The position numbers and the translations under genes are program-made. The notes below the pieces were generated by a model that was not told where the DNA came from, did not search any database, and saw only the letters and a list, made by a program, of their open reading frames with translations. Shown one piece after another: positions 3,090 through 18,161 of a DNA stretch of 64,000 nt (the stretch's first letter is position 1; each line of letters starts with the position of its first letter). The stretch is from an uncultured Lachnospiraceae bacterium (GTDB lineage Bacteria > Bacillota > Clostridia > Lachnospirales > Lachnospiraceae), in the NCBI GenBank assembly GCA_900317755.1, contig ONHZ01000067.1, positions 1-64,000 of the forward strand. The letters run 5' to 3'.

Positions 3090-4550
3090 TTATATCCTTG
3101 CTTCCAGCAGTTCAATCGCTGCCTTGATTCGTGCGACAGACTCGTCCTTCCCAAGAATCTCAAGAAGCTCGGTTGCACCGCCTGGAGTTGCAGGCTTGCC
3201 TGAAAGTGCCGTACGGATCGGCCACATGACCTGTCCGTTCTTGTAGCCATTGTCTGATGCAAAGCCCTTCAGTAGTTCAAACAGTGCATCATTTGTATAG
3301 TCATCAGTATCTTCAAGAACAGGAAGCACCTTCTTTAAGACCTCAAGTGAAAGCTCCGGGGTCGTCTTCATCTTCTTATGAGTATAAAGTGAGATGTCGT
3401 ACTCAGGCACTGCCTCAAAGAAGTCGCAGATGTCCTTTATATCTGAATAAAGCTCGATTCTTGACTGAACCATTCCGGCAATCTTCTTAAAATCAAGATC
3501 CTTATGAATTGTCTCCTTGAGGTATGGAAGAGCCTTCTCATAAAAGACCTCAGGGTCCTGCTTCTTTAAGTATTCGCCATTCATCCAGCGAAGCTTAACC
3601 GTATCAAATACGGCCGGAGATTTATTGATTCTGTGGTAATCAAAAGCCTTGACAAGTTCGTCAAGCGTCATGATTTCATTTTCATCTTCAGGCGACCAGC
3701 CGAGAAGGGCAACGAAATTCACGATTGTTTCAGGTAAGTATCCTAAATCAACGAGGTCTTCAAATGAAGAATGTCCGGACCTCTTTGAAAGCTTCTGGTG
3801 CTCTTCATTTGTAATCAGTGGGCAGTGGATATACTTCGGAACTTCCCAGCCAAATGCCTCATAAAGAAGATTATACTTCGGAGATGATGAAAGGTATTCG
3901 TTTCCACGGATGACATGGGTAATGCCCATCAGATGGTCATCGATAACATTTGCAAAATTGTAGGTAGGATAGCCGTCGGACTTGATCAGAATCATGTCGT
4001 CAAGCTCGGAATTATCTACTGTGATGTCTCCGTAAATCTCATCATGGAAGGTCGTGGTACCTGTTGTCGGAACATTCTGCCTGATGACATAAGGCATGCC
4101 GCTTGCAAGATTTTTCTCAATCTCCTCCTTTGAAAGATGGAGGCAGTGCTTGTCATAGAAGGAAACTTCCTTACCATCAATTGTCTTCTTAAGGCTTTCA
4201 AGCCTCTCCTTCGTACAGAAGCAGTAATATGCTTTGCCCTCGTCAATAAGCTGCTTTGCATACTTCATGTAGAGTCCCTGATCGCAGCGGACAGACTGAA
4301 CATAAGGGCCAACAGGGCCGCCGATATCCGGTCCCTCGTCCCACTTTAAGCCTGCATCATTCAAGGTCTTATAAATAATATCCGTAGCGCCTTCAAGGAG
4401 TCTTTCCCTGTCGGTATCTTCAATTCGAAGTATGAAATCGCCGTCCTCATGCTTCGTGATGAGGTAAGCGTAAAGTGCTGTTCGTAAATTTCCTACATGC
4501 ATTCTTCCTGTAGGTGATGGTGCAAATCTGGTCCTAATCTTCTCTGCCAT
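3090..4550 (-). CDS. gltX: Glutamate--tRNA ligase
   Basis: Class I aminoacyl-tRNA synthetase that charges tRNA with glutamate. The HIGH-type motif is seen as [12 protein letters not shown] at residues 9-20 and the KMSKS-type loop as KLSKR at 253-257. A zinc site is likely from Cys110, Cys112, Cys136 and His138, the pattern of the zinc-binding GluRS type. Length 486 is standard. The start is supported by an AAAGGA sequence upstream of ATG. A separate glnS is present at 23006, so this enzyme need not be the non-discriminating form that feeds amidation, although that cannot be excluded. Upstream lies a possible extended -10 (TGTTATACT, revcomp at 4594-4602) and a small ccgaag/cttcgg hairpin at 4574-4592. 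No T-box-like leader is visible. Confidence 0.96.
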
Positions 4551-4627: not shown

Positions 4628-5836
4628 TCAAGCTTCATCTGTCTCAGGCTTCAGTCCGCACAGTTTGTCAACAGATTTCAAAATCTCAACGATTTCCGGA
4701 ACATAGAAATCATGCTCCTTCATGAGAGAATTAATCTCATTTCTCTCTTTCAGAATCGCTTTCCGGTTCTTTAAAATATCAGTCTTCAGAGCTTCAATTC
4801 TCTTCTCAAAAATACCCTTGATTTTCAAAAGGTTGTCCCTGTCCTTCAAAGCTCTTGTCTGCTTCAGCCAGACATTGATATCAGATAAATCAAGCGGTGA
4901 AAGAAGCTTATACAGCTTATTAGAATAATACGAAAGATCTTCATTATCCGAAAGAAATTTATCCCTTTCACGGACAGCCTCAAGATAAGCTTCCCATTTG
5001 TAATTCAGCTCAAGAGAACTCTGCACGCCGAAATTTGCCTTGGAAAATTCGACTGCATTTACTCCTGCAGCATACTTCATCCTCGTGGTATTTAAGATAG
5101 ATGTCACGGTATTAAGATACCTCGCTGCATCCTTACGGCGTTTTGCATTCCCGGTCTCGATATGATAAATCACGACACATGCCACTGCCCCAAACAGGAG
5201 GTAAAGCAGAAACGGCGTATTCATTTCCAGCTTTGAAGTAATCTTTAATATTATGACAAGAATAAAACCGGAAAGATAAAGCATATAAAAAGCAATGGAT
5301 GCCCTCTTCAAAAATCCGCGGCTTTTATTGATATCGTCGAGATCTATCTTCGCCTCTGAATGCTCGCCCTCTATTGCTGTAAGGGAAGTCCGCATTTTCT
5401 CAACATAGTCTTCATTCTGCTGAAGCTTCTTAATCTCATTTGGAATAGCGTCTTCATTTTCCATCATGATCATATAGTCTTCGTCAGAAATCTTCTTTTC
5501 ACTGTTCTGATAATTCTGTGTGGAAACTTCTTTCTTTTCGATGAGATCAGCAGTTTTTTCTATCTCAGTTCTCTTTTCTTCGGGAAGGGAATTTATCTTG
5601 TCTATGTCTGAAACATATCCCTCAAGAGCACGAAGCCTTGCCTTTTCGCCTTCATTCTGCTTCGTAAGGGAAATCACTTCCTCGCAGGAATCTAATATAT
5701 ACTGCTCTATCTTCTTTGGATCAGACATATCATCAATCTTGTGGATCTCTGATAGCACCTCATCCATTGTCTCATCAAGATCGTCTCCAGTGGCTTTATT
5801 TTTTTTAGAAAAACGTAATTTGTTAAAAATAGACAT
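4628..5836 (-). CDS. Membrane-anchored coiled-coil protein, last gene of Hsp70-like operon
   Basis: I do not recognise a named family. The 402-residue protein has a charged, heptad-rich N-terminal half (about residues 10-180). Two adjacent hydrophobic segments follow (about 184-203 and 210-228: AFYMLYLSGFILVIILKI and PFLLYLLFGAVACVVIYHI), likely a transmembrane hairpin. The C-terminal half is again helical and charged. There is no signal peptide, so both coiled-coil halves would lie on the same side of the membrane, most simply the cytoplasm. It is the last gene of a four-gene operon and begins 14 bases after the TPR gene, with GGTGG as ribosome-binding site. Inference: it tethers the operon's Hsp70-like and repeat proteins to the membrane. 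Not a transporter or sensor by any motif I can see. Confidence 0.75.
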   Translation of the reverse strand: MSIFNKLRFSKKNKATGDDLDETMDEVLSEIHKIDDMSDPKKIEQYILDSCEEVISLTKQNEGEKARLRALEGYVSDIDKINSLPEEKRTEIEKTADLIEKKEVSTQNYQNSEKKISDEDYMIMMENEDAIPNEIKKLQQNEDYVEKMRTSLTAIEGEHSEAKIDLDDINKSRGFLKRASIAFYMLYLSGFILVIILKITSKLEMNTPFLLYLLFGAVACVVIYHIETGNAKRRKDAARYLNTVTSILNTTRMKYAAGVNAVEFSKANFGVQSSLELNYKWEAYLEAVRERDKFLSDNEDLSYYSNKLYKLLSPLDLSDINVWLKQTRALKDRDNLLKIKGIFEKRIEALKTDILKNRKAILKERNEINSLMKEHDFYVPEIVEILKSVDKLCGLKPETDEA

Positions 5837-5850
5837 TTAAACCACCAAAA

Positions 5851-6675
5851 TCAAATCCTGCAGAGTGTCTCATATTCTGCCTGATATTCATTTATCTTTT
5901 GAAGGATGCTCTTCTTCATTTTTTCTTCAGACTCCTCTTCCGCAATCGCCTCGATCTCTGTATGCTTTGAAAGATATTCCCTTGATGTCATACAGTCTGT
6001 AACGGTCTGCTTTATTGATTCTCTTTCCTCTTCTGAAAGAAAATACCGTTCACAGTACTGATCGAAGGCTTCGTCATTTTCGGAAAGCAGTGTGGTAAAA
6101 AGTAGGCATCTAAGTGTTGAGCGCTTGTGATTCTTTATATAGGCTTCCCTGAAGGACGCCTCTGCCTCTGAAAACATGAAGAGATATGCGTATGCCGTTC
6201 CAAGATTGTGATAAACATCACCAAGGAGGACATCCGTCATAGTACCGGAAATAGTCAGCGTATTCTGATATTCAAAAATCGCATCAACTACACGGCCCTT
6301 TTCAAAAAGCCTGTCTGCACGCATCTTTCCAATCTCTGCATCGGATTTGTTTTCAAACTCCATGATGGTGGAAATCGTTTCCTTTATTTCTCCTTTTGTG
6401 AGATATCCGTTTGCATTCAGAATCTCAGAAACAAAAAGAGAAAGTGTCACATTTTCCTTCAATAGCGTGCGCAGTGTCTCAGCAAGATCTTTCAGGTGAA
6501 GCTCGTCATTGATCCACTCGACGAGTTCGATGTTCATAAGATCAGGTCCGGCGAGGTAGGCATTCTGATAGATGCAGTATGAAAGCTCTTCCAGTGAATA
6601 TACCGAAATAGAAAGGTCCTCAATATAATACGGGTTTAGTGCAATTCCCGATGTTGTCTTTAATAATTCTCCCAT
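5851..6675 (-). CDS. TPR-like helical repeat protein of Hsp70-like operon
   Basis: The 274-residue protein is soluble and mainly helical. A segment around residues 120-190 (FEKGRVVDAIFEYQNTL, then YHNLGTAYAYLFMFSEAEAS and YIKNHKRSTL) reads as two or three tetratricopeptide repeats. The N-terminal 100 residues have no motif I recognise. The start codon abuts the stop of the upstream gene (TAA directly followed by ATG, with GAGGAA as ribosome-binding site), so translation is probably coupled to the Hsp70-like gene. TPR proteins often act as co-chaperones that hold Hsp70 or client peptides, which suits this neighbourhood; that role is inference. No catalytic motif is visible. Confidence 0.75.
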   Translation of the reverse strand: MGELLKTTSGIALNPYYIEDLSISVYSLEELSYCIYQNAYLAGPDLMNIELVEWINDELHLKDLAETLRTLLKENVTLSLFVSEILNANGYLTKGEIKETISTIMEFENKSDAEIGKMRADRLFEKGRVVDAIFEYQNTLTISGTMTDVLLGDVYHNLGTAYAYLFMFSEAEASFREAYIKNHKRSTLRCLLFTTLLSENDEAFDQYCERYFLSEEERESIKQTVTDCMTSREYLSKHTEIEAIAEEESEEKMKKSILQKINEYQAEYETLCRI

Positions 6676-7932
6676 TTATTCCTCTTTTTCAGCTGAGATT
6701 TCATGCTCCCAGACCTTGTTCGTAGCAGGTGTGATTTCTCCGAAGCCAAGATCGACAATCTTTATCTTCACCCTGGTGTCAGACAGTGGAATCGCTGAAA
6801 TACGAAGCCTCGATGTCCTGTTTTCCCTCTTTGGAAAATCATTAAGCGTGATTTCGACTACATCTGCCCTTCTTGATTCCGGGCGCTGCACCCAGCATTC
6901 AACTGAAGGCTCGCCATCTAAAATGACTTCGGTCTCCCCTTTTGCCTCATACCAGTTGTCACCGGCAGAAAGAAGTGTGATAAAGCCCATATCATTTTTG
7001 TCATAAATCTTCAGCGAGACATTGATTTTCAGTTCATTATCTCCGATATAGACATATTCCCAAGGCTGGTCTCCGCATTTCACGATGCTCGAAACACAGG
7101 CACCCTTTGAATAGAGATTCTTTCCAATAAAGACACGTCTGCCCTTCAAAAGATGCTGAAGGCTCTCCTGCATCCAGTCGCCATCGAAACCTTCACCGAC
7201 AAGATAGACAGATGAAATATCATTTTCATGAAGGACTTTGGAAACAATTTCTTCAAAAGATGCATCACGGTCAGAATAGGAAAGCTGCCCGTCATTTTCA
7301 GTATAGAGATTCACGATACGCGGTCTCGTGGAAATATCAATGTGAAGGACAGTATGGGTGAGATAATTCTTTTCGAGATTGAAAACCAGTACGTCCTTTC
7401 TGAAAATATCAGGCTGCTGGCTTAATACATAATAATAAAATCCTTCAGCACGGTCTACCACATAAAGCCTCTGCGGAACGACACCGATTTTGGAAGCAAT
7501 GGACGAAAAGGTCTCTATCACAGACATATCGACGCTGTCAGTGCATATCGTGATTGCCTTGATATTATATTTGTTCCCTATTGTAAAGCCAGGCAGCACT
7601 AATAATTTCTTGATATAAATTGCCAGAAGGTCCCTGGCCTCAAAGACCTCGCTCTCGATAAAAATCTTATCATTCGTGACTGCCTTGTGGAAAAGGTCCT
7701 CTGCCTCTATTGCATTTCCACTTCGTATCTCATTCTCTGCTTCATTACCAAAATACCACTGGCCAAGTCCCTTCCTCTTTGCAAGGACCATCGGAATGAG
7801 ATAATTCTCTTTACCTACAACAGTGCTGACTGTTTCAGGCTCTTCCATATCAAATGTGAAGAAAGAGATCAGTGTATTTTCTTTTCCGAAATCAATTCCA
7901 ATATACATGGAATCGTTTGTATTATTTGCCAT
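6676..7932 (-). CDS. Hsp70-like ATPase (DUF5716-type)
   Basis: This 418-residue protein opens with an actin/Hsp70 phosphate-1 motif, YIGIDFGKENTLISFF (residues 10-25). A likely phosphate-2 segment follows (LVFNLEKNYLTHTVL), and then a glycine-containing adenosine-type motif (SSVYLVGEGFDGDW). The C-terminal 130 residues are rich in beta strands (INVSLKIYD, VECWVQRPESRR, RLRISAIPL) and may be a reduced substrate-binding domain. It is much shorter than DnaK (about 610) and lacks the helical lid, so it is a divergent Hsp70 relative, not DnaK. From memory it corresponds to the DUF5716 family of Lachnospiraceae. The gene starts two bases after the DUF5717-like gene, with GGAG overlapping that gene's stop. 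Probably an ATP-driven conformational switch working with its three neighbours. Confidence 0.8.
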   Translation of the reverse strand: MANNTNDSMYIGIDFGKENTLISFFTFDMEEPETVSTVVGKENYLIPMVLAKRKGLGQWYFGNEAENEIRSGNAIEAEDLFHKAVTNDKIFIESEVFEARDLLAIYIKKLLVLPGFTIGNKYNIKAITICTDSVDMSVIETFSSIASKIGVVPQRLYVVDRAEGFYYYVLSQQPDIFRKDVLVFNLEKNYLTHTVLHIDISTRPRIVNLYTENDGQLSYSDRDASFEEIVSKVLHENDISSVYLVGEGFDGDWMQESLQHLLKGRRVFIGKNLYSKGACVSSIVKCGDQPWEYVYIGDNELKINVSLKIYDKNDMGFITLLSAGDNWYEAKGETEVILDGEPSVECWVQRPESRRADVVEITLNDFPKRENRTSRLRISAIPLSDTRVKIKIVDLGFGEITPATNKVWEHEISAEKEE

Positions 7933-7934
7933 TT

Positions 7935-10900
7935 TTACTCCAGATGGAAAAGATCCTTTGTCTCTTCCGAAAGTTCAACATACTTCCTCATCGAACGAAG
8001 AAGATCATCCTTGTCGAAATAAATGTATGAGTTCCTCATCCTGTTGATGAGATTGTATCGCAATGCATCCTGGTTTTCTACATCAGACTGGCAGTCAAGA
8101 GAAGAATTCAGAAGTTCTTTTCCTTCCTCATCGGTAATACGGTAATGCACGATCTGGCCAAAGAACAGGATGAACTGCTGCACATAGATGCCATCATACA
8201 TCTCTGTGAGCTCAGCCTTCTTCTCTTCAGAATCATCAATAGAATAATAAATAGTAAGATCCTGACGGGGTGCACCATAATAGGTCACAAAATATTTGTC
8301 ATAGAGATGATACTTCATTCGAAGCGGTTCATAGACTCTCCTGTAAAAATCAAAGTAAAGATTCTTTCCTGTCGCTTCACCTAAGAATTCGTCCAGCATC
8401 TCGATTTCTTTTTTCGTCAGATCCTTTGAATCCTTCTCAGAAAAGTATTTGATGCTCGCAAGCTTCATGCCGGAATTTTCCCTGTGTCCGCTGAAATAGT
8501 AATCCTCGATATGCTTGAAAAGATCTGGTGACCCTTTTTCTTCGCCCTTTAGATACCCGTGGGCAAAATAGGTAAGATATGCCTCAACAAGCATGGAATT
8601 ATTCCTGTGCGTCAGATAAGATTCAAAAATAAGCTGGTGCTCTGGCAGAAAGACCTCTGTATAAAGCATCTGTGTCAGTATCTTTTCTTCAAGCTCTGAA
8701 ACATCAAGGGACTGGGCATCCGCATGCTTCCAAAGCATCACCATAGCTTCTGTAGGACCCGTGTAATGCTGATTCAGATAAGCTGTGATTTCCGGCTCCG
8801 TAAGGTATTCGCTCATCAGATAAATAGACATCATGATGAGGAACTTCTGGCTCTCTGAATCCTTTTCCTTTCCCACCTCATACTGGCAGATGCGAAGGAG
8901 GGATTTCTTGCCGACATTCTGGGCAAAATAATTCATCGTAAGATCAAATGCCCTGTCGAACTGTCCGGAAATCACATAGAGCTCGATGATATAGGATATC
9001 GTACCAGTATCAAGCTCATCATAATCATTCTCCTGAAGAAGATATTTCTCAAATATCTCCTCTCGCATATTTTCACGAAGATAAGAAACAATGCTCCGGT
9101 AATTCTGCATTTTGAAGGAACGTGAAATCTTGTCTGATGCAAGAAACCGGCTGATGACCTCATCAGAGCCTTCAGGAAAATCTGAATAGGTCTCATACTC
9201 AATGATATCGTGCATGAAAAATGCGAGATTCCCCTTTGCCATGGAATCAAGACTGTCATAAATCTTTGAAAGATCGATCAAAGGCTCGATTTCATAAAGC
9301 GTCCTGTCTGAAAGCATATTTCCAAAATCATCTATGAGGGCAATCCGATAGTCATTTGAAAGTATGCTCGTAAAACAGAACTTTCCACGAACCGGAACAA
9401 CCTTCGGATCCTTAAAAATATCGCCAGAAATAATGACAGAACGGATATTGGGAGCCTTTATGGTAATACGCATAGGATAAAGCATCTTTGAAAGACTGTC
9501 TGCAACATCCTCATCAATAATGCCGCGGTCTAATGTATCCTGATAAATGACGGCAAGATTGTCATCCATCCTGCCCTTTCGCATCCCGTCGAGTGCAAAG
9601 CTCTGTATTGACTTTGACATCTCTTTATAGAGCAAAGGATCTTCATTCTTGTGGGAAATGACATTGGCATAAACATATGCCTTCTTGCTGTCTTCTATCG
9701 CATTTTCAAAGGTAAAATATCTGACTACAGACTCCGGCAGCTTCTCTGTGGAATTCTCCGGAAGCGAGAAAATATATGCCTCATAAAGACCTGTGTATTT
9801 CTTTCCCAGACGGATGGAAAGCGAGTACCAGGAAAATGCCATCTTCCCATAAATCTCATTGCTAAGAAGGTAGCTCACGATCCCGTCAAGCATCTCATCT
9901 GAAGGAAAAAGCCTGTATGTCGCAGTGACAATATGAAAAATACGAAGGTCAAACTTCTTTACTTCATGAAGCAGCGTCGAAATCCTGAGCGCAAGATTTC
10001 CCTTAACCGTCTGGTGCCTGATCATCCATAAAAGCACCCTGATATTAAAATCATCAAAGTTCTTCAGAAGCAGCGGATCTTTATTGAATAAGTCGCTTAC
10101 CTCAACATAGAAATACGGCGAATATACGCCATTGACCATGAACTGCCTGATATCAGTAAATTTCTTCAGATCATTTCCGATGTAATCCTCTCTCAGAAAA
10201 AGAAGGAACCAGAAAATCTTTGGATCTTCAGGATGCTCACGGAAAATCATCTCTATCTCATGCGTCAGCTTGTCAACATAGTTCTTCTCTCTCTCAATCA
10301 ATGTACAGATATAGAGAAGATATGCCCACTCCATGCTCTTATTGTCTAAGATTTCGTGGCGGAGCCCGGAAATAATATCAAGGGCTTCCTGCCTTCTCTT
10401 ATTCACAATAAGTGCCTGGGCCTTCATGAGAAGCAGAAAATTCTTATTCTTTTCGTCAAGACTCAAAAGCCTGTCGAGTATCTCAACAGATTCATCACTC
10501 CATGTACCAGCTGTAATCTCACGCTGCCTGTAAAGAAGATATTTCCTGGTAAGCTCTGTATAGGAGCGTTTTTTCACCCTTACAAAATCATCAATTGCAA
10601 TATTGGAAGGACGCTTTATTACTATAACGATTTCTTTCCTGCCAAGTATGGATGAAAATGTAATGCGGCAGAGGTTCATGCCGGCGTGCATCTTCTCAGG
10701 ATGAAGGAAAATGTCATACTGGTAAACGGACCCTACGAAAACTTCTTCCGTAATATGGTCCTTGCTCAGTGTCACAAAGTCGCTGTCTGCAGCAACCTTA
10801 ATATCAAGGCTGCCGGTGCCAATCTTTCGAAGTGTAATCGACTGTCTGGTCTCCTCTTCGATATTGTCAAGGGAAAAATAATCCTTTTCAATTTCGAAGC

Positions 10901-11474
10901 CTGCACGCTGCTTTAAGCCAGTGCCAATAAGGAATTCATCGAGATTCACCTCGGTAGGAAGAGCCTTCCTGTATGCCAGAAGAAGAAGGTAGAAAGATTT
11001 CCCCATCTTCTTTGCATAAGGCAGAAATTCATCTGAAAACATCACCCTGACTGCTTCCTGCGGATGCTTCAGTGCAAAATCCCTGAAATCTTCAGGCGTC
11101 TTGATCACTGTATCAAGGGCAGTAAAATCCCTTGCAATAAAATTCACAGTCACAGGAATATGCTTTTCGCCGCCATTATATACAATCAGGAAATCGCCAG
11201 AAACTGAGTCACCTGCACGGAAGCCATCGTTTACCATATGAAAGCCGACATCAAATGAAGTACCGGAAAATGACTCCTCATCTAAAACAATATATGGATT
11301 GGAAGAATAGATGTTGCAGGAAATGCTGACATCGTTTAAACTCTTTACTGTAAATGAAGAAGAGAATTTTTCTTTTTCGTAAGCCGTTAAAGCTAATTCT
11401 TCAGACGGAAGACCAAGTTCAGGTTTCTTTATATCAAAGCGGTCTTCAGATATTCGGTAAATCTTTCTTCTCAC
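7935..11474 (-). CDS. Giant beta/helical-repeat protein (DUF5717-type), first gene of Hsp70-like operon
   Basis: An 1179-residue protein without signal peptide or membrane segment. Residues 1 to about 310 look like two beta-sandwich domains, with strands such as SGDFLIVYNGGEKHIPVTV and GSLDIKVAADSDFVTLS. A long helical-repeat region follows to about 690, then a short beta insertion (IRSVIISGDIFKDPKVVPV) and more helical repeats to the end. The architecture suggests a scaffold. It resembles the DUF5717 family as I remember it; no activity is known to me. The start is GTG at 11472-11474, chosen because AGGAG lies 7 bases upstream and no better ATG exists. It leads the operon, and the next gene starts two bases after its stop. 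An extended -10 promoter (TGCTATAAT) sits about 45 bases upstream. Confidence 0.8.
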   Translation of the reverse strand: MRRKIYRISEDRFDIKKPELGLPSEELALTAYEKEKFSSSFTVKSLNDVSISCNIYSSNPYIVLDEESFSGTSFDVGFHMVNDGFRAGDSVSGDFLIVYNGGEKHIPVTVNFIARDFTALDTVIKTPEDFRDFALKHPQEAVRVMFSDEFLPYAKKMGKSFYLLLLAYRKALPTEVNLDEFLIGTGLKQRAGFEIEKDYFSLDNIEEETRQSITLRKIGTGSLDIKVAADSDFVTLSKDHITEEVFVGSVYQYDIFLHPEKMHAGMNLCRITFSSILGRKEIVIVIKRPSNIAIDDFVRVKKRSYTELTRKYLLYRQREITAGTWSDESVEILDRLLSLDEKNKNFLLLMKAQALIVNKRRQEALDIISGLRHEILDNKSMEWAYLLYICTLIEREKNYVDKLTHEIEMIFREHPEDPKIFWFLLFLREDYIGNDLKKFTDIRQFMVNGVYSPYFYVEVSDLFNKDPLLLKNFDDFNIRVLLWMIRHQTVKGNLALRISTLLHEVKKFDLRIFHIVTATYRLFPSDEMLDGIVSYLLSNEIYGKMAFSWYSLSIRLGKKYTGLYEAYIFSLPENSTEKLPESVVRYFTFENAIEDSKKAYVYANVISHKNEDPLLYKEMSKSIQSFALDGMRKGRMDDNLAVIYQDTLDRGIIDEDVADSLSKMLYPMRITIKAPNIRSVIISGDIFKDPKVVPVRGKFCFTSILSNDYRIALIDDFGNMLSDRTLYEIEPLIDLSKIYDSLDSMAKGNLAFFMHDIIEYETYSDFPEGSDEVISRFLASDKISRSFKMQNYRSIVSYLRENMREEIFEKYLLQENDYDELDTGTISYIIELYVISGQFDRAFDLTMNYFAQNVGKKSLLRICQYEVGKEKDSESQKFLIMMSIYLMSEYLTEPEITAYLNQHYTGPTEAMVMLWKHADAQSLDVSELEEKILTQMLYTEVFLPEHQLIFESYLTHRNNSMLVEAYLTYFAHGYLKGEEKGSPDLFKHIEDYYFSGHRENSGMKLASIKYFSEKDSKDLTKKEIEMLDEFLGEATGKNLYFDFYRRVYEPLRMKYHLYDKYFVTYYGAPRQDLTIYYSIDDSEEKKAELTEMYDGIYVQQFILFFGQIVHYRITDEEGKELLNSSLDCQSDVENQDALRYNLINRMRNSYIYFDKDDLLRSMRKYVELSEETKDLFHLE

Positions 11475-11519
11475 GGAAGGGCTCCTAAGAATGTTGACAA
11501 AATTAATATTAACTTTATA

Positions 11520-11528
11520 ATTATAGCA
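11520..11528 (-). promoter_or_regulatory. Extended -10 promoter of the Hsp70-like operon
   Basis: On the minus strand the bases read TGCTATAAT, a consensus extended -10 (TGnTATAAT). The matching -35 position has only a weak TTTAAT. It is followed by an AT-rich leader and the AGGAG/GTG start of the 1179-aa gene. Confidence 0.55.
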
Positions 11529-11574
11529 AATTTTTGGTGAATATTAAATATAAAATTATTATTAGATAATTGAG

Positions 11575-11656: not shown

Positions 11657-12817
11657 ATGTCAACAAGTGATACTGAGCAGTTTCACGGAAGTGATCTGGA
11701 GAAAATTGAGAAGGTATTTCATATAAAGAAAGAAGAAATCGTTAGTTTTTCAGCGAATGTAAATCCGCTTGGAATTTCGCCAGCACTCAGGACTGTGCTT
11801 GCTGAAAATATTGATTCGATTGCGACATATCCGGAGAGGGATTATGAGACGCTGAAAAGCTCGATTTCAGAATATACCGGAGCTGAGCCAAAGGATATCA
11901 TGGTCGGAAATGGGACGACCGAATTAATCTCTCTTTTTATTGATATTGTGTCTCCGAAAAAGGCACTTATTCTAGGTCCTACATATTCTGAATATGAAAG
12001 AAGTATTTCTTTGGTCGGCGGAAGGACTTCCTATTATCCTCTGAAGGAAGAAAATGATTTTCGTCTTGACATTGATGATTTCTGCAGGAAAATCACTTCT
12101 GACCTCGACCTCATCATCATCTGCAATCCGAATAATCCGACATCTTCTATCATAGACCGTGATGAGATGCGGAAAATATTAGACTGCTGCAAGGAAAACT
12201 CTGTCTTCGTGATGGTCGATGAGACGTATATTGAATTCACGGAAAATTACAAGAAATATACGGCGATTCCGCTATGCTCGATTTACAATAATATTATTGT
12301 TTTAAGGAGTACATCAAAATTCTTCGCATGCCCTGGTCTCAGACTTGGCTATGCGATTTCAGGAAATGAAGATTTGTATTCCAGAATCATGCGTTACAAG
12401 AATCCGTGGATGATTCACTCTCTCGCTGTTGTTGCCGGAAACTATATGTTCAGAGACAGGGAATACATTGACGAAGTATATTCTTTAGTAGATTCCGAGA
12501 GAAAGCGTATGTATGAAAAATATTCTTCCTGCGGAATTTTCAAGGTTTATAAGCCGTATGCAAATTTCATGCTGCTTAAGATACTACCTGAAGAACTCTC
12601 TAGTGCAGGCCTATTTGAGCGGGCAATTCACGAGAAGATGATGATTCGCGACTGCTCATCTTTCCCATTCCTCTCCGACCGCTTCATAAGAATCTGCTTC
12701 ATGAACCCGAAGGATAATGACAGGCTGTTTGAGTGCCTGACAAGATGGTCAGCTAAGGCTCTGGTGCTACAAAAAACACCTGGCGGAAACCAGGTGTTTC
12801 AAAATATTGTGAATTAA
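11657..12817 (+). CDS. PLP-dependent aminotransferase, CobD/HisC-like
   Basis: Fold-type I pyridoxal-phosphate enzyme of the threonine-phosphate decarboxylase/histidinol-phosphate aminotransferase group. The N-terminal FSANVNPLGISP (residues 34-45), preceded by HGSDLEKIE, is the CobD-like opening. CNPNNPTS binds the cofactor ring, VMVDETYIEF contains the PLP aspartate, and STSKFFACPGLRLGY contains the Schiff-base lysine. The usual CobD length is about 360; here about 20 extra C-terminal residues (after LTRWSAK) are encoded by a terminator hairpin belonging to the opposite strand, so the original stop may have been lost. No other cobalamin genes are nearby, so the substrate is uncertain: threonine phosphate, histidinol phosphate or another amino acid. 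ATG at 11657 follows AGAGG. Confidence 0.85.
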   Translation: MSTSDTEQFHGSDLEKIEKVFHIKKEEIVSFSANVNPLGISPALRTVLAENIDSIATYPERDYETLKSSISEYTGAEPKDIMVGNGTTELISLFIDIVSPKKALILGPTYSEYERSISLVGGRTSYYPLKEENDFRLDIDDFCRKITSDLDLIIICNPNNPTSSIIDRDEMRKILDCCKENSVFVMVDETYIEFTENYKKYTAIPLCSIYNNIIVLRSTSKFFACPGLRLGYAISGNEDLYSRIMRYKNPWMIHSLAVVAGNYMFRDREYIDEVYSLVDSERKRMYEKYSSCGIFKVYKPYANFMLLKILPEELSSAGLFERAIHEKMMIRDCSSFPFLSDRFIRICFMNPKDNDRLFECLTRWSAKALVLQKTPGGNQVFQNIVN

Positions 12818-12965
12818 TGTTTGTGTCCTTTGCAACAGACATATTTATGTCTTTTACGCTTTTAATATTCTGATTTTTGAAAATCCTCTTGCAATAGTCA
12901 CTTGGTTTGAGACCGGATTTCTTATATTCATCTTTTTCTCCAAGGTGAATCTTTTCCTTATTCAT
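12753..12965 (-). CDS. Short uncharacterised ORF, possible remnant next to AAA ATPase fragment
   Basis: A 70-codon frame that begins ATGA-overlapped with the preceding ATPase fragment (12962-12965) and ends inside the aminotransferase gene on the other strand, where its last 12 or so codons read through the terminator hairpin. The protein is Lys/Asn-rich at the start and matches nothing I know. The overlap suggests it was the second gene of a two-gene locus whose 3' part has been lost. It may not be expressed as a functional protein. Confidence 0.35.
   Translation of the reverse strand: MNKEKIHLGEKDEYKKSGLKPSDYCKRIFKNQNIKSVKDINMSVAKDTNINSQYFETPGFRQVFFVAPEP
12774..12799 (-). terminator. Strong terminator inside the 3' end of the aminotransferase gene
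   Basis: A perfect 10-bp stem (aaacacctgg at 12774-12783 with ccaggtgttt at 12790-12799) has the loop cggaaa. The minus strand continues with six T residues, so it terminates leftward transcription from the ATPase remnant. The same bases encode the last residues of the plus-strand aminotransferase. Confidence 0.75.
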
Positions 12966-13393
12966 TTGATTTCTCCCTGAAGATATTTTTTATAACCCAT
13001 TATAGCTTCATAGCTGGGTGCCGTTCCATTAAGATAATCGCTTTCATAGGCAACGCTCTTCTTGATATCATTTCTCTGAAAGCGTGTCGAAAGATTCTCT
13101 ATAGTAATTCCACCTTCATTTCTTACAATATATGTATTATCATTTCTGTCAAATTCATCAAGAAGTGCAGGATAATGCGTAGAAAATAACAGCACCGCAC
13201 CTTTCTTATTTATCTTTTGATTTTGGAACAGCCTGATTAGTACAGCAACAAGTTCTCGATTAAAGTGATTCTCCATCTCATCAACAATCAGATACCCGCC
13301 ATTTTGAAAAATTTCCAAAGCAGCCATATATACAGTCAGACCTTTGATGGTACCTGAAGAAAGATAAACATTTAGCTCCCTTTCATTAGTCAC
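12962..13393 (-). pseudogene. C-terminal remnant of an AAA_21/OLD-like ATPase
   Basis: The 143 codons encode only the back half of an SMC/ABC-type ATPase of the kind found in abortive-infection and retron-type defence loci. They include the signature-like LSSGTIKGL (residues 11-19), Walker B YLIVDEMENH (34-43) and the H-switch region LLFSTHYPALLDEF. Walker A and the N-terminal 200 or more residues are absent. The nominal start is GTG at 13391-13393 with a stop codon five codons upstream in frame and no clear ribosome-binding site, so this is a truncated relic. Its truncation point lies near the nfnB terminator. Likely origin: a defence island insert that has eroded; that is inference. Confidence 0.65.
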
Positions 13394-13564: not shown

Positions 13565-14953
13565 TTACGCTACATCTTCACCGAAATATTTCCTGATGCC
13601 CTTGGCTGCAGCCTTGCCTGCGCCCATAGCGAGGATTACGGTTGCGGCACCTGTGACGGCATCGCCTCCTGCGTAAACGCCCTTCTTTGTGGTAGCACCG
13701 AAGTCATCTTCTGAAACGATGCAGCCACGCTTGTTTGTCTCAAGTCCTTCTGTCGTAGAAGAAATGAGAGGGTTTGGAGACGTGCCAAGTGCCATGATGA
13801 CGGTATCGCAGTCAATGTCATACTCGCTTCCCGGAATTTCAACAGGTCTTCTTCTGCCGCTTGCATCAGGCTCGCCAAGCTCCATCCTGATGAGCTTGAT
13901 GCCGCAGACATCACCGTCTTCATTTGTGAGAATCTCGACAGGGTTCTGCAGAAGATCAAAGATAATGCCTTCCTCTTCTGCGTGATGAACCTCTTCCTTT
14001 CTTGCAGGAAGCTCTGCCATTGAACGACGATAAACGATGTGTACCTCTGCGCCGAGACGGAGTGCTGTTCTGGCAGAATCCATAGCAACATTGCCGCCAC
14101 CTACGACGACAACCTTCTTGCCGTGATGGATCGGTGTATCTAAATCCTTGTAAGCCTTCATGAGGTTATTTCTTGTAAGGTATTCATTTGCTGAGAATAC
14201 GCCGTTTGCCTGCTCGCCAGGAATGCCCATGAATCTTGGAAGGCCTGCGCCTGAGCCAATGAATACGGCTTCGAAGCCCTTCTCGTTCATAAGCTCGTCG
14301 ATGGTAACTGACTTTCCGACAATGACATCAGTATCAATCTTTACACCAAGGCCTTTGACATTTTCAACTTCCTTTGCAACGACTTCGTCCTTTGGAAGCC
14401 TGAATTCAGGAATGCCATAGACAAGAACGCCGCCTGCCTTGTGAAGTGCCTCGAAAATTGTAACATCGTAGCCAGCCTTTGCAAGATCGCCTGCACAGGT
14501 AAGTCCGGAAGGACCTGCACCGATGACGGCAACTTTGTGACCGTTCTTTGTTTCTGGCGCCTTCGGCTTAATTCCGTTCTTTCTTGCCCAGTCAGCAACG
14601 AAACGCTCGAGCTTTCCGATGGCAACGGCCTCGCCCTTGATACCACGGACGCATACGCCCTCGCACTGTGATTCCTGTGGGCATACTCTTCCGCAGACTG
14701 CCGGAAGGGCTGAAGACTCAGAAATAATTTCATAAGCCTTCTCGAAATTTCTGTTCTTAACTTCCTGAATAAATGCAGGAATATTAATTGAAACCGGGCA
14801 GCCGCCTACGCACCTTGGGTTCTTGCAGTTTAAGCAGCGACCTGCTTCCTCAACTGCCTCATCTTCGGTATATCCAAGGCAGACCTCGTCAAAATTTGTG
14901 GCCCTGACCTTAGGATCCTGCTCCGCAATCGGAGTTCTTTTCATCATATCCAT
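13565..14953 (-). CDS. nfnB: NADH-dependent ferredoxin:NADP oxidoreductase large subunit (GltD-like)
   Basis: Large subunit of the electron-bifurcating transhydrogenase NfnAB, which couples ferredoxin and NADH oxidation to NADP reduction in the cytoplasm. Eight cysteines for two [4Fe-4S] clusters are seen at residues 40, 43, 48, 52 and 87, 91, 97, 101. The FAD site is IGAGPSGL (144-151) and the pyridine nucleotide site is VVGGGNVAMDSA. The length of 462 matches NfnB and the small subunit of glutamate synthase (GltD); the large GltB subunit is not here. The partner directly upstream is an NfnA-type subunit, which decides the call. It may be annotated elsewhere as glutamate synthase small subunit. 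ATG follows GAGGAAAATAT. Confidence 0.9.
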   Translation of the reverse strand: MDMMKRTPIAEQDPKVRATNFDEVCLGYTEDEAVEEAGRCLNCKNPRCVGGCPVSINIPAFIQEVKNRNFEKAYEIISESSALPAVCGRVCPQESQCEGVCVRGIKGEAVAIGKLERFVADWARKNGIKPKAPETKNGHKVAVIGAGPSGLTCAGDLAKAGYDVTIFEALHKAGGVLVYGIPEFRLPKDEVVAKEVENVKGLGVKIDTDVIVGKSVTIDELMNEKGFEAVFIGSGAGLPRFMGIPGEQANGVFSANEYLTRNNLMKAYKDLDTPIHHGKKVVVVGGGNVAMDSARTALRLGAEVHIVYRRSMAELPARKEEVHHAEEEGIIFDLLQNPVEILTNEDGDVCGIKLIRMELGEPDASGRRRPVEIPGSEYDIDCDTVIMALGTSPNPLISSTTEGLETNKRGCIVSEDDFGATTKKGVYAGGDAVTGAATVILAMGAGKAAAKGIRKYFGEDVA

Positions 14954-14971
14954 ATATTTTCCTCACTTAAT

Positions 14972-14991
14972 ATACTCGCTCGCGCTCGAGT
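14972..14991. repeat. ATACTCG inverted-repeat element, copy 2 (short)
   Basis: The bases atactcgctcgcgctcgagt contain a small hairpin (actcg at 14974-14978 with cgagt at 14987-14991). It occupies the gap between nfnA and nfnB and shares its left arm with copies at 11575 and 20632. An intercistronic hairpin here could tune the ratio of the two subunits. Confidence 0.45.
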
Positions 14992-15013
14992 TTGACGCTA
15001 TCCAAAAAACTCC

Positions 15014-15895
15014 TTAGCTGCACTGGCCGCAGCCACCATGATGGGTTGCGCCTTCTTCGAATTCGAGCTTCTTGCGGCCTTCTTCTGTCTTGTACTGTCT
15101 TGCTCTCTTCATTGCAAGATCGAAGTCTACAAGATGTCCATCGAATTCTGGGCCGTCAACGCAGGCGAACTTTACTTCGCCGCCAACGATAAGTCGGCAG
15201 GCACCGCACATACCTGTTCCATCGACCATGATTGGGTTCATGGAAACTACTGTATGAATGCCGAGCTCCTTTGTGAGCTTGCAGACGAATTTCATCATGA
15301 TCATAGGACCGATTGCTACGCAGTGGTCAAACCGCTGTCCTTCGTCCCAGAGAGCCTTAAGCTGATCTGTGCCCATGCCATGGAAACCGAATGAACCATC
15401 ATCTGTAGTGATGTGTAGGTCGTCGCAGACCTCGGCCATCTTGTCTGTGAAGAATAATAAGTCCTTATTCCTTGAGCCCATGATGACTGTAGAAGAAATT
15501 CCGTGCTCCTTCAGCCACTTAACCTGTGGATATACAGGTGCTGTACCAACACCGCCTGCGATAAAGACGATCTTTTTCTTCTTTGTCTCTTCAAGATTTT
15601 TCTCTTCGCAGAGAAGTGATGGGCAGCCAAGAGGTCCGACTACATCTGTGAAGGAATCGCCTTCATTCAAAAGTGCCATCTTCTCAGTTGATGCACCGAC
15701 AGTCTGGAAGACGATCGTGATAATCTCCTTCTCTCTGTCATAGTCACAAATCGTAAGAGGAATTCTCTCACCGTCTTCGCCGTCCTTCACGATAACGAAC
15801 TGACCCGGAAGACAGCGGGCAGTAACGTTCGGAGCCTTGACATCCATCTGATAAATCTTATCAGCGAGAAGCTCCTTTTTCACAATCTCAAACAT
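15014..15895 (-). CDS. nfnA: NADH-dependent ferredoxin:NADP oxidoreductase small subunit
   Basis: The 293-residue protein is a ferredoxin-NADP reductase-like flavoprotein related to dihydroorotate dehydrogenase electron-transfer subunit PyrK. It carries an FAD-binding beta barrel (PGQFVIVKDGEDGERIPLTI, residues 30-49), a nucleotide-binding domain (IVFIAGGVGTAPVYPQ), and a C-terminal [2Fe-2S] cysteine set (GMCGACRLIV followed by KFACVDGPEFDGH). It ends with a Gly/Cys tail (GGCGQCS). It pairs with NfnB to transfer electrons from NADH. The ATG is preceded by AAGGAG at ideal spacing. The gene begins 30 bases after the CobW-DUF1980 gene and is 60 bases from nfnB, so the three may share a transcript. 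Confidence 0.9.
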   Translation of the reverse strand: MFEIVKKELLADKIYQMDVKAPNVTARCLPGQFVIVKDGEDGERIPLTICDYDREKEIITIVFQTVGASTEKMALLNEGDSFTDVVGPLGCPSLLCEEKNLEETKKKKIVFIAGGVGTAPVYPQVKWLKEHGISSTVIMGSRNKDLLFFTDKMAEVCDDLHITTDDGSFGFHGMGTDQLKALWDEGQRFDHCVAIGPMIMMKFVCKLTKELGIHTVVSMNPIMVDGTGMCGACRLIVGGEVKFACVDGPEFDGHLVDFDLAMKRARQYKTEEGRKKLEFEEGATHHGGCGQCS

Positions 15896-15925: not shown

Positions 15926-16894
15926 TTAATTAAAATAAACCAGTTCATCTTCTGGCTTATTTGTAGGCTTGATTTCAAGCGGGTACAAAACCGGTCCTTT
16001 GCCGCGGTATTCCTTGGCAAATTCGTTTTTGACTTTCGCGGTGAGGTCAATCCAGCTCTTGTGGCCGATTTCATCGGACTTCGGATATTTGCATTTCATT
16101 CCGAGGAACTGGATGTCCTGCACACAGCAGGTCATGGCAAATCTTCCTGGAACAATGGTGCCAGGCTTCAGCTTGCCCTTACCTTCCTTTGGATTGTACA
16201 CGAGAGCCGTGAAATGGACATCCTTGCCATTATATTTATCAGGATGATCCATGCAGTCTGAAAACCAGAGTGCATAGTCGGCATCGGTAATCTCAATCGG
16301 ATCCGTATTAATATCAAATGGAAGTTCCTCCGGCCTGTCATCAATCGTGCCATCTTCACGAAGGTATACAATCTGCGCACGGCGGTTTACCGACTTCACA
16401 TTTGCCCTGAACTTTGCTTTCTTGACATCGTCCGGACAGCGGTTAAAAATGACAACATCTGCCTTGAAAAGCTGCTCCGACATCATCGTACGCATATTCA
16501 GCATATACATCTCAAAGGTCGTTGCATCGACAGTCGCAAGTGCCTGAACAATCGTCCAGTCCTTCGGTCCGTCCATCTCATAAATCGGACCTACTTCCCA
16601 GGTTCCATTATATTCTATGAAGACTGCTTCAGGCTTGTACGCATCTGTAAGTTTCTGAAGATTCTCCTCAGTGAAATCCTCTTCATTTTCAATTGTCACG
16701 AGCGTACCGCCAATTGCATTGATCGCCTTTTCATCATATTCTTCATCTCCGTCTTCACAGACAATGAGAAGAAATCGATCAAGGTCGTCAGCAAAACCGT
16801 TCTCAAAAAGAGTTTCTTTCACGAGCGTCGTCTTGCCGCTGTCCATAAAGCCATAGAAGAAATATACAGGAATCTCATCTTCTTCGGAAGCCAT
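15926..16894 (-). CDS. CobW-like P-loop GTPase fused to a DUF1980/YcgQ C-terminal domain
   Basis: The 322-residue protein starts with a G3E P-loop, FYGFMDSGKTTLV (residues 12-24). It lacks the CxCC metal motif of the COG0523 family that its neighbour has. From about residue 200 it changes to a second domain with VHFTALVYNPKEGKG and the segment GRFAMTCCVQDIQFLG, which resembles the C-terminal DUF1980 (TIGR03943, YcgQ) domain of a membrane protein usually paired with the permease YcgR. In other Firmicutes that pair is linked to zinc homeostasis; here the domain is attached to a GTPase instead of a membrane anchor. Function inferred: handling of zinc or another metal. It is preceded by a 14-bp inverted repeat (16919-16971) and uses GGTGA before its ATG. 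Confidence 0.75.
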   Translation of the reverse strand: MASEEDEIPVYFFYGFMDSGKTTLVKETLFENGFADDLDRFLLIVCEDGDEEYDEKAINAIGGTLVTIENEEDFTEENLQKLTDAYKPEAVFIEYNGTWEVGPIYEMDGPKDWTIVQALATVDATTFEMYMLNMRTMMSEQLFKADVVIFNRCPDDVKKAKFRANVKSVNRRAQIVYLREDGTIDDRPEELPFDINTDPIEITDADYALWFSDCMDHPDKYNGKDVHFTALVYNPKEGKGKLKPGTIVPGRFAMTCCVQDIQFLGMKCKYPKSDEIGHKSWIDLTAKVKNEFAKEYRGKGPVLYPLEIKPTNKPEDELVYFN

Positions 16895-16918
16895 CTTATC
16901 ACCGCCTTATAACAAAAT

Positions 16919-16971
16919 GATTTTCACTTATTTCGTGCAAAAATCAGCAAGTGATAGAATAAGTGAAAATC
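16919..16971 (-). promoter_or_regulatory. 14-bp inverted repeat between two CobW genes
   Basis: Arms gattttcacttatt (16919-16932) and aataagtgaaaatc (16958-16971) are perfectly complementary and 25 bases apart. In RNA this would form a stable hairpin about 25 bases before the start of the fusion gene, followed on the minus strand by ATTTTG. It may be an attenuator or partial terminator, or a protein-binding operator. It does not resemble the Zur box that I know from Bacillus. Confidence 0.5.
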
Positions 16972-16987
16972 AAGAAAAAATCAATAT

Positions 16988-18073
16988 TTATTGCTCAAGT
17001 CCGAAAAGCTTTTTGAGTTTTCCTTCATCAATATGCTGTCCAATGACTACAAGCCTTCCTGTATAGTCGGGCTCGCCGTCACGAAGCTCGTATTCGCCAT
17101 CAACAAAATCGAAGTAAACCCACTTTTTGTCTTCGACTTCAACCATGCCCTTTGAACGGATGACATCACCATAGGAATCGCCTTCAGCAAAGGTCTTAAG
17201 CGCATTTTCGATGTCAGCCTTCTTAAATACATGAGGTGTCTCAATACCCCAGTTGTCAAAGACTTCATCTGCGTGATGATGGTGCTCATGACCTTCGCCG
17301 TCATGGTGGCAGCAGTGGCCATGTTCGTGTTCATCGTCGTCATCATGGTGATGGCAGCAGTGGCCATGTTCATGTTCGTCTTCGCCATCATCGTCGTGGT
17401 GATGATGATGCTCAGCCTCGTGCTCTGCCTCTTCGATCTCATGATCCTTCATAGAAAGATCCTTGTAGAAATCATTGCTCTGTCCTTCGATGACCTCGGC
17501 AATCTTCTCGCCTGAAAGGTCGTCCCAGGGCGTTGTGATGATCTTTGCATTCGGATTTAATTCCTTGATCTTTGCAACTGTGAATTCAAGGTCTTCGTTT
17601 GTAGCCTTCTGCGTTCTTGAAAGAATGACTGTCGTAGCATGTGCAATCTGATCGTTGAAGAATTCGCCAAATGCCTTCATCTGCTTCTTTGCCTTAAGGG
17701 CATTTACGACTGTGACCATGCCTGAAAGCTGAAGTCCGATTTCATCCTCGAGACGGATAACAGAAGCTGCGACATCAGAAAGCTTTCCAACGCCTGAAGG
17801 CTCGATAAAGATTCTGTCTGGAGAAAACTTTGCTACGACCTCACGAAGGTTTCTGTCAAAATCTCCAACGAGCGTACAGCAGATGCAGCCGGAATTCATC
17901 TCTGTAATCTGGATGCCTGAATCCTTAAGGAAACCGCCATCAACGCCGACTTCACCGAATTCGTTCTCAATCAGGACAAGCTTCTGCCCCTGATAAGCTT
18001 CCTTGATCAGCTTCTTAATAAGCGTAGTCTTTCCAGCGCCTAAAAATCCTGAAAAAATATCTACCTTTGTCAT
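16988..18073 (-). CDS. CobW/COG0523 family GTPase with His-rich metal-binding loop
   Basis: G3E-family metallochaperone GTPase. It shows Walker A GFLGAGKTTL (residues 9-18), the switch segment ENEFGEVGVDG, and the diagnostic CxCC motif GCICC near residue 62. From about 215 to 268 there is a loop made almost entirely of His, Asp, Glu and Cys, with an internal duplication of DEHEHGHCCHH, which should bind zinc or nickel. A C-terminal CobW_C-like domain follows. The start is set at ATG 18073 because GGAGG lies 5 bases upstream; a longer reading frame from TTG at 18085 would begin before the ribosome-binding site. It most likely delivers or buffers zinc; the adjacent CobW-DUF1980 gene supports a metal-handling pair. 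Confidence 0.88.
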   Translation of the reverse strand: MTKVDIFSGFLGAGKTTLIKKLIKEAYQGQKLVLIENEFGEVGVDGGFLKDSGIQITEMNSGCICCTLVGDFDRNLREVVAKFSPDRIFIEPSGVGKLSDVAASVIRLEDEIGLQLSGMVTVVNALKAKKQMKAFGEFFNDQIAHATTVILSRTQKATNEDLEFTVAKIKELNPNAKIITTPWDDLSGEKIAEVIEGQSNDFYKDLSMKDHEIEEAEHEAEHHHHHDDDGEDEHEHGHCCHHHDDDDEHEHGHCCHHDGEGHEHHHHADEVFDNWGIETPHVFKKADIENALKTFAEGDSYGDVIRSKGMVEVEDKKWVYFDFVDGEYELRDGEPDYTGRLVVIGQHIDEGKLKKLFGLEQ

Positions 18074-18161
18074 CATTACCTCCAATGCAAAAGCTTAAAA
18101 TTTCAAAAACAATTTACATCATATCAAACTTGTCAAGAACAAAAACGTCCGGGTGTAGTCC

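What the first reader, a model, noticed from the sequence alone, without database searches (positions are those of the whole stretch)
4628..11528. Four-gene Hsp70-like operon with scaffold, TPR and membrane coiled-coil partners
A divergent short Hsp70-like ATPase is translationally coupled with a 1179-aa beta/helical-repeat protein, a TPR protein and a membrane-hairpin coiled-coil protein. Gaps are 2, 0 and 14 bases and one extended -10 promoter drives them. The set looks like a dedicated membrane-associated chaperone or assembly complex. I know of no described function for DUF5716/DUF5717-type proteins; co-working of the four is inferred from the gene order and Hsp70/TPR biology.
Basis: partly seen in the sequence, partly recalled or inferred. 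Interest (0 to 1): 0.72.

Follow-up and report, generated by a model that had tools for sequence, protein, structure and literature searches.

The report
Gut bacteria's inactive Hsp70 scaffold operon
Nearly every member of a dominant gut-bacterial family carries a four-gene set built around an Hsp70 chaperone relative that has lost its ATP-burning parts, and related bacteria still carry the larger machine it came from, with four Hsp70s and their own exchange factor, so a dead enzyme appears to have outlived the working ones.

Summary
In detail: four tightly packed minus-strand genes (gaps 2, 0, 14 bases) encode DUF5717 (1179 aa), an Hsp70-fold protein (DUF5716, 418 aa), a TPR protein and a two-TM coiled-coil protein. 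The order is conserved across Lachnospiraceae; DUF5717 is in 58 of 60 genera sampled, with or without flagellin or SpoIVA. HSP-TPR and DUF5717 N/C gene fusions support physical association. The predicted fold is Hsp70 NBD plus SBD-beta, but it is probably not an ATPase: in 114/114 relatives the catalytic Lys, about 80 residues of NBD subdomain IIB (the GrpE-binding lobe) and the lid are missing. In sister families the same locus encodes a larger machine: three Hsp70s with intact motifs (one fused to vWA), a degenerate Hsp70, a long GrpE-like protein, DUF5717 as two genes, TPR and coiled-coil. DUF5716 nests inside the degenerate paralogue; its sister paralogue and the vWA part were not found in 60 Lachnospiraceae genera. 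Best reading: a stripped-down, nucleotide-independent pseudo-Hsp70 scaffold at the membrane, working like Ssz1 but not a RAC member. The cellular task is unknown. I found no paper describing it.

The parts
7935..11474 (-). BIG (DUF5717): two Ig/ASH-like beta-sandwich domains (about aa 27-124 and 192-288), alpha-solenoids (about 292-662 and 739-1054), inserted and C-terminal beta domains. A fusion of two genes (~390 + ~900 aa) that are separate in most sister-family loci.
6676..7932 (-). HSP (DUF5716): pseudo-Hsp70, degenerate NBD without subdomain IIB plus an SBD-beta-like domain, no lid
5851..6675 (-). TPR protein with a conserved N-terminal domain (about 110 aa) found only in this system in the genomes sampled; the sister-family orthologue is longer (~387 aa)
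4628..5836 (-). CC: cytosolic coiled-coils flanking a two-helix membrane hairpin (about aa 178-230)
   Evidence: two hydrophobic segments in 93 of 97 homologues
11520..11547 (-). candidate operon promoter, TTAATA-16-TATAAT with TG before the -10
   Evidence: consensus match only
11494..11521 (+). perfect sigma-70 consensus promoter for the divergent aminotransferase gene; its -10 overlaps the operon's -10
   Evidence: consensus match only
11657..12817 (+). divergent class I/II aminotransferase; conserved divergent neighbour in 72 of 121 Lachnospiraceae loci and near the operon in three sister-family loci; locus context only
3090..4550 (-). glutamyl-tRNA synthetase (gltX), downstream neighbour in this genus; valS takes this place in several other genera and in sister families

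Best explanation
The operon encodes the non-catalytic core of a dismantled Hsp70 machine. The common ancestor of these Lachnospirales families had one locus for two scaffold subunits (beta-sandwich and solenoid), three Hsp70s with intact catalytic motifs (one carrying a vWA domain), a fourth degenerate Hsp70, a long GrpE-type exchange factor, a TPR protein and a membrane coiled-coil protein. In Lachnospiraceae the intact Hsp70s and the exchange factor were lost, the two scaffold subunits fused, and the degenerate Hsp70 lost NBD subdomain IIB (the lobe GrpE grips). What remains is proposed to be a nucleotide-independent complex: BIG is the cytosolic scaffold, the pseudo-Hsp70 is a fixed adaptor whose SBD-beta groove holds a peptide segment of a partner or client, TPR binds the pseudo-Hsp70, and CC anchors the set to the membrane in most lineages. 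Shown by sequence or model: gene order, fold, loss of catalytic and NEF-binding elements, ancestry, fusions. Inferred: complex formation, peptide holding, membrane tethering, lack of ATPase activity. Unknown: which clients or process it serves.
For: Conserved order and tight spacing. DUF5717 in 58/60 genera, independent of flagellin (34/60) and SpoIVA (42/60). AF2 model pLDDT 92.4, pTM 0.86; all of the top 50 PDB fold matches are Hsp70-family chains, best E 6e-20, aligned over 500+ columns across NBD and SBD-beta. Lys70 0/114, second phosphate loop degenerate, Asp194 83/114, and only 36-39 of the 120 DnaK positions 181-300 filled in all 114 versus 103-114 in every sister-family P2. P1/P3/P4 keep Lys70, Glu171, Asp194 and Thr199 throughout. 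Sister-family operon with GrpE (E 5e-12) and an Hsp70-vWA protein (vWA E 1.5e-10). Rooted tree: P2+DUF5716 one clade, DUF5716 inside P2 (AU p 2e-7 against P2 alone), P3 sister. P3 found in 0/60 Lachnospiraceae genera but 11/12 sister genomes; vWA part 0/60; long GrpE-like protein absent from the family genomes tried. HSP-TPR single-ORF fusion. BIG split/fused.
Against: No experiment shows a complex, membrane location or lack of ATPase activity. Asp14 (DnaK Asp8) is kept in 95% and Asp/Glu at the Asp194 position in 84%, so weak nucleotide binding is not excluded. CC is not detected in part of the family. The catalytic Glu position is ambiguous in the alignment (Asp160 may stand in its place in the close genera). 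Foldseek TM-scores are moderate (0.45-0.55). Tree branches are long.
Confidence: 0.55

Rival explanations
1. RAC-like co-chaperone: the pseudo-Hsp70 complex is not stand-alone but recruits the cell's ordinary DnaK/DnaJ/GrpE to a membrane site, as Ssz1-Zuo1 recruits Ssb to the ribosome, so the ATPase is supplied in trans by DnaK.
For: A canonical DnaK is in the same genome (G000:C30). Ssz1 is the closest mechanistic parallel: no lid, binds but does not hydrolyse ATP, no classical NEF (PMC7083937), and Ssz1 chains are among the fold matches. The lost intact Hsp70s might have been replaced by DnaK.
Against: No J-domain was found in the operon here or in the sister-family proteins scanned. Zuo1 supplies the J-domain in RAC; nothing analogous was seen.
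Confidence: 0.22
2. A nucleotide-controlled switch: DUF5716 still binds ATP through Asp14 and a re-modelled site and changes shape without classical hydrolysis, gating the scaffold.
For: Asp14 kept in 108/114, Gly246 and Gly277 of the adenosine side in 114/114, new invariant motifs GxGFxGxW and GKNLYSKGA beside the former nucleotide site.
Against: Both phosphate loops are degenerate, Lys70 is absent and subdomain IIB, one wall of the nucleotide cleft, is missing. In the window protein the second loop reads NLEKNY for DLGGGT.
Confidence: 0.13
3. A biological-conflict (defence-type) system related to the GAP1-N2 neighbourhoods with HSP70, GrpE, a second HSP70 and an FNIII-TPR protein (PMC7159879).
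For: The sister-family gene set matches that theme closely: Hsp70s, GrpE, vWA, beta-sandwich plus TPR protein, membrane protein.
Against: No GTPase domain and no variable effector in the proteins scanned; nearly universal, mostly single copy, vertically inherited at a recurring locus; no PADLOC hit better than E 0.02.
Confidence: 0.08

Closest known systems
Ssz1 of the fungal ribosome-associated complex (RAC)
   Same: Hsp70 relative with NBD and SBD-beta but no lid, non-hydrolysing, no classical NEF, acts as a fixed partner of a scaffold protein (PMC7083937); appears among the fold matches.
   Different: Ssz1 keeps ATP binding and works with a J-domain protein at the ribosome; no J-domain was found here, subdomain IIB is deleted, and the partners are an Ig/solenoid scaffold, a TPR and a membrane protein. 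Not homologous as a system.
GAP1-N2 GTPase-centric systems, HSP70/GrpE theme (Kaur et al. 2020, PMC7159879)
   Same: HSP70 plus GrpE plus a second reduced HSP70, with a beta-sandwich (FNIII) protein fused to TPR or DnaJ, near membranes; resembles the sister-family operon.
   Different: Their second HSP70 lacks the peptide-binding domain, while DUF5716 lacks subdomain IIB but keeps SBD-beta. No GTPase was found here. Four Hsp70 paralogues and an Hsp70-vWA fusion are not described in the passages read; Lachnospiraceae keep only the degenerate Hsp70.
Canonical bacterial DnaK/GrpE system
   Same: Common fold; P1, P3 and P4 of the sister operon keep all catalytic motifs; GrpE-type C-terminal head domain on the long exchange factor.
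   Different: DUF5716 has lost the catalytic motifs, subdomain IIB and the lid; no Pfam HSP70 match at E<=1. It is a second, separate Hsp70 relative beside the genome's DnaK.

Membership tests
Hsp70 superfamily (by fold and descent) | ASKHA nucleotide-binding fold followed by SBD-beta | tested here: met
   AF2 pLDDT 92.4; top 50 PDB matches all Hsp70-family, E down to 6e-20; profile-profile match to sister P2 E 1.6e-58 and to an Hsp70 alignment E 7.7e-24; nests inside a Pfam-HSP70 paralogue clade
Hsp70 ATPase (functional) | Catalytic Lys70, Glu171, Asp194 and phosphate-loop Thr/Gly (DnaK numbering) | tested here: not met
   Lys70 0/114; second-loop glycines and Thr degenerate; Asp194 83/114 and Asn in the window protein; Glu171 position ambiguous. 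Role of Lys70 from PMC8215388
Hsp70 with GrpE-type nucleotide exchange | NBD subdomain IIB, which contacts GrpE (DnaK 255-272 and 276-302, PMC10825016) | tested here: not met
   36-39 of 120 DnaK positions 181-300 filled in all 114, versus 103-114 in sister P2; literature on the contact
Hsp70 with lid | SBD-alpha helical lid after SBD-beta | tested here: not met
   Protein ends after the SBD-beta strands; occupancy of DnaK positions after about 480 is below 0.4 and falls to about 0 after 520
RAC (Ssz1-Zuo1) | J-domain partner protein in the complex | tested here: not met
   No J-domain in the four window proteins nor in the sister-family proteins scanned
GAP1-N2 conflict systems | GAP1-N2 GTPase component | tested here: not met
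   No GTPase domain in the four window proteins or in the sister-family proteins scanned
DUF5716/DUF5717 Pfam families | Match above the curated cut-off | tested here: met
   316.7 bits against 34.7; 693.2 and 236.5 bits against 25
Peptide-binding chaperone activity | SBD-beta groove binds peptide | not testable with these tools
   Domain present in the model; binding needs an assay

The most novel reading that the evidence does not exclude
A multi-Hsp70 membrane-associated machine specific to Lachnospirales (three Hsp70s with intact motifs, one fused to vWA, a dedicated long GrpE, one dead Hsp70, an Ig/solenoid scaffold) has in Lachnospiraceae lost every ATPase and its exchange factor while the dead Hsp70 and the scaffold stayed nearly universal: a pseudoenzyme that outlived its enzymes and now carries a core, nucleotide-independent function in a dominant gut family.
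Probability: 0.45. Interest if true: 0.8.

Novelty: new variant of a known kind. Interest (0 to 1): 0.62.

Why it matters
It names a near-universal gene set of unknown function in Lachnospiraceae (Roseburia, Agathobacter, Butyrivibrio, Pseudobutyrivibrio) and gives it a testable origin and mechanism. It offers a natural series from a full four-Hsp70/GrpE/vWA machine to an ATPase-free remnant, in which loss of subdomain IIB and loss of the exchange factor go together. That allows a direct test of what a chaperone scaffold does without its motor.

Tried and rejected
(1) Sporulation- or motility-specific role: rejected, since DUF5717 is in 58/60 genera while flagellin is in 34/60 and SpoIVA in 42/60. 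(2) Defence system: no useful PADLOC hit and vertical inheritance at a recurring locus. (3) NCBIfam gave nothing useful for the window proteins; Pfam weak hits for CC (FTA4, DUF4776) were judged coiled-coil noise. (4) A GrpE-like hit in L145 (301 aa, E 7e-34) was inspected and looks like a methyl-accepting chemotaxis coiled-coil, a profile artefact. (5) That DUF5716 is ancestral and the large operon derived: disfavoured by the rooted tree and the P3 search with its positive control. (6) The ~440-aa gene upstream of BIG in some genera looked like a system member; by eye it is a RarA-like AAA protein, and it was not found in the sister loci checked. (7) Literature: DUF5716/DUF5717 gave one irrelevant paper; other searches found no description of the operon. 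(8) search for related loci with distant alignments failed for lack of conserved stretches.
Full report
OBSERVATION. The four genes are present as described: BIG 7935-11474, HSP 6676-7932, TPR 5851-6675, CC 4628-5836, all on the minus strand, gaps 2, 0 and 14 bases. Pfam assigns DUF5717_N/DUF5717 and DUF5716_C with overwhelming scores, weak TPR to the third and nothing to the fourth. A TG-extended -10 element is present, but it overlaps a perfect consensus promoter pointing the other way toward an aminotransferase gene. Consensus matches are only modestly above chance in this region, so the promoter is a candidate only.

CONSERVATION. Every genome of the family tried (25 of 25) has a DUF5716 match. 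DUF5717 is in 58 of 60 family genera and in 46 of 47 high-quality genomes, mostly once per genome. The sample of 250 phylum genomes rings only in this family (4 genomes, the window's own included), and so does the TPR protein's N-terminal domain. Within the order, PF18980 rings in 59 of 116 genomes. Named carriers include Roseburia, Agathobacter, Butyrivibrio and Pseudobutyrivibrio. Gene order BIG-HSP-TPR-CC is kept in 68 of 80 named loci, most exceptions being contig ends, with median spacings of 14, 7.5 and 13 bases. In a more diverse sample BIG-HSP-TPR holds in 34 of 36 loci with a called HSP, but CC is found next in only 20. Presence does not track motility or sporulation genes.

THE SISTER-FAMILY MACHINE. 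In other families of the order the homologous locus is much larger. The usual order is BIG-N (~390 aa), BIG-C (~900 aa), Hsp70-P1 (~559), a 560-645 aa protein, Hsp70-P2 (~457-542), Hsp70-P3 (~546), Hsp70-P4 (~692), TPR (~387), and in some loci CC. Pfam on one nearly complete example (L091) gives HSP70 for P1 (5e-76), P3 (4e-63) and P4 (1.5e-96), weaker HSP70 plus DUF5716_C for P2 (7e-17; 2.6e-27), a GrpE domain at the C-terminus of the long protein (5e-12) and a vWA domain on P4 (1.5e-10). The vWA metal-site motif DTTGS is invariant in the five copies aligned. P1, P3 and P4 are 74-85% identical between families; P2 is 35-49% and the GrpE-like protein 33%. Both forms sit in related genomic contexts: valS downstream in some loci of each, and the divergent aminotransferase upstream in 72 of 121 family loci and near the operon in three sister loci.

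ANCESTRY. A tree rooted on DnaK of the same order groups DUF5716 with P2 (support 100), places it inside P2 (AU p 2e-7 against P2 without it) and makes P3 the sister of P2+DUF5716 (earlier tree). P3 therefore predates Lachnospiraceae and was lost there. Consistently, P3 is found in 0 of 60 Lachnospiraceae genera and in 11 of 12 sister genomes, the P4 vWA region in 0 of 60, and the long GrpE-like protein in none of the family genomes. Branches are long, so the exact position within P2 is less certain than the P2 assignment.

THE 418-aa PROTEIN. AlphaFold2 gives pLDDT 92.4 and pTM 0.86. The 50 best PDB fold matches are all Hsp70-family chains, aligned over more than 500 columns, i.e. NBD and SBD-beta; there is no lid. 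Against 114 relatives: the lysine that contacts the ATP gamma-phosphate (DnaK Lys70, role in PMC8215388) is never present; the second phosphate loop DLGGGT is degenerate (NLEKNY in the window protein); the phosphate-1 Asp is kept in 108; the Asp194 equivalent is Asp in 83. About 80 residues are missing in every member, corresponding to subdomain IIB, which every P2 retains. IIB contacts GrpE (PMC10825016), so loss of IIB and loss of the dedicated GrpE coincide. Invariant residues lie elsewhere: GxGFxGxW, GKNLYSKGA, and the C-terminal DLGFGE motif. Glu171 is ambiguous: profile alignment puts Asp160 opposite it, but Asp160 is not conserved family-wide.

PARTNERS. BIG is predicted (pLDDT 86.7, pTM 0.55) as two Ig-like sandwiches, solenoids and further beta domains. 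Its best fold matches are ASH-type and other Ig-like domains of ciliary central-pair and centrosomal scaffolds and, for the solenoid, TPR proteins: structural resemblance only. BIG-N and BIG-C are separate genes in most sister loci, mapping to about residues 12-290 and 296-1162 of BIG; the break falls at the model's low-confidence segment 291-294. In one genus HSP and TPR are a single 713-aa ORF (Pfam). Two hydrophobic segments are found in 93 of 97 CC homologues.

MECHANISM. The best-supported reading is a nucleotide-independent scaffold at the membrane: BIG as frame, the pseudo-Hsp70 as a fixed peptide-holding adaptor, TPR bound to it, CC as anchor. Shown: order, fold, losses, ancestry, fusions. 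Inferred: complex, location, peptide holding, no ATPase. The parallel is Ssz1, which lacks the lid, does not hydrolyse ATP and needs no classical NEF (PMC7083937). It is a likeness of mechanism, not membership, because no J-domain partner was found. A RAC-like use of the cell's own DnaK (present) is the main rival. The sister-family set resembles the HSP70/GrpE theme of GAP1-N2 conflict systems (PMC7159879), but no GTPase was found and the system is near-universal and vertically inherited.

NOVELTY. No paper in the searched library describes DUF5716/DUF5717 or this operon. I rate it a new variant of a known kind (Hsp70 machinery): the components are known families, while the combination, the Hsp70-vWA fusion with a long GrpE, and the retention of only the dead Hsp70 are, to my knowledge, undescribed.

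Noticed in passing
window 12962-13393 (-): 143-aa ORF resembling the C-terminal part of an AAA-type ATPase (AAA_21/OLD-like), apparently a truncated remnant between the aminotransferase and the next gene; recognised by eye, not searched.
   Followed up: no
window 13565-15895 (-): Adjacent oxidoreductase pair: a 462-aa flavoprotein with Fer4_20 and pyridine-nucleotide domains (Pfam) and a 293-aa ferredoxin-reductase-like protein, resembling NfnB/NfnA or a GOGAT small-subunit pair.
   Followed up: partly
window 15926-18085 (-): Two CobW-type GTPase genes side by side, the second with long His/Asp/Glu-rich stretches, suggestive of metal (zinc) handling; by eye only.
   Followed up: no
window 11494-11547: Two opposed promoter-like elements share overlapping -10 boxes, so the operon and the divergent aminotransferase gene might compete for polymerase. 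Not tested in relatives.
   Followed up: partly
L081 (G027): In the family whose P2 is nearest to DUF5716, several operon genes look interrupted (split P4 and TPR ORFs, short GrpE-like, in-frame stop in P1): decay in progress or assembly errors.
   Followed up: no
L150 (G029): A genome of the same order with BIG, Hsp70-P1 and the GrpE-like protein up to the contig end but no P3 found in the genome; possibly a different reduction, or a fragmented assembly.
   Followed up: partly
L091 17722-17976: An ORF made of a repeated FNSTIVRLN stretch looks like a CRISPR repeat array read as protein, just beyond the large sister-family operon.
   Followed up: no
L148 5746-7887: HSP and TPR are fused into one 713-aa reading frame, a Rosetta-stone fusion used in the argument.
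   Followed up: yes
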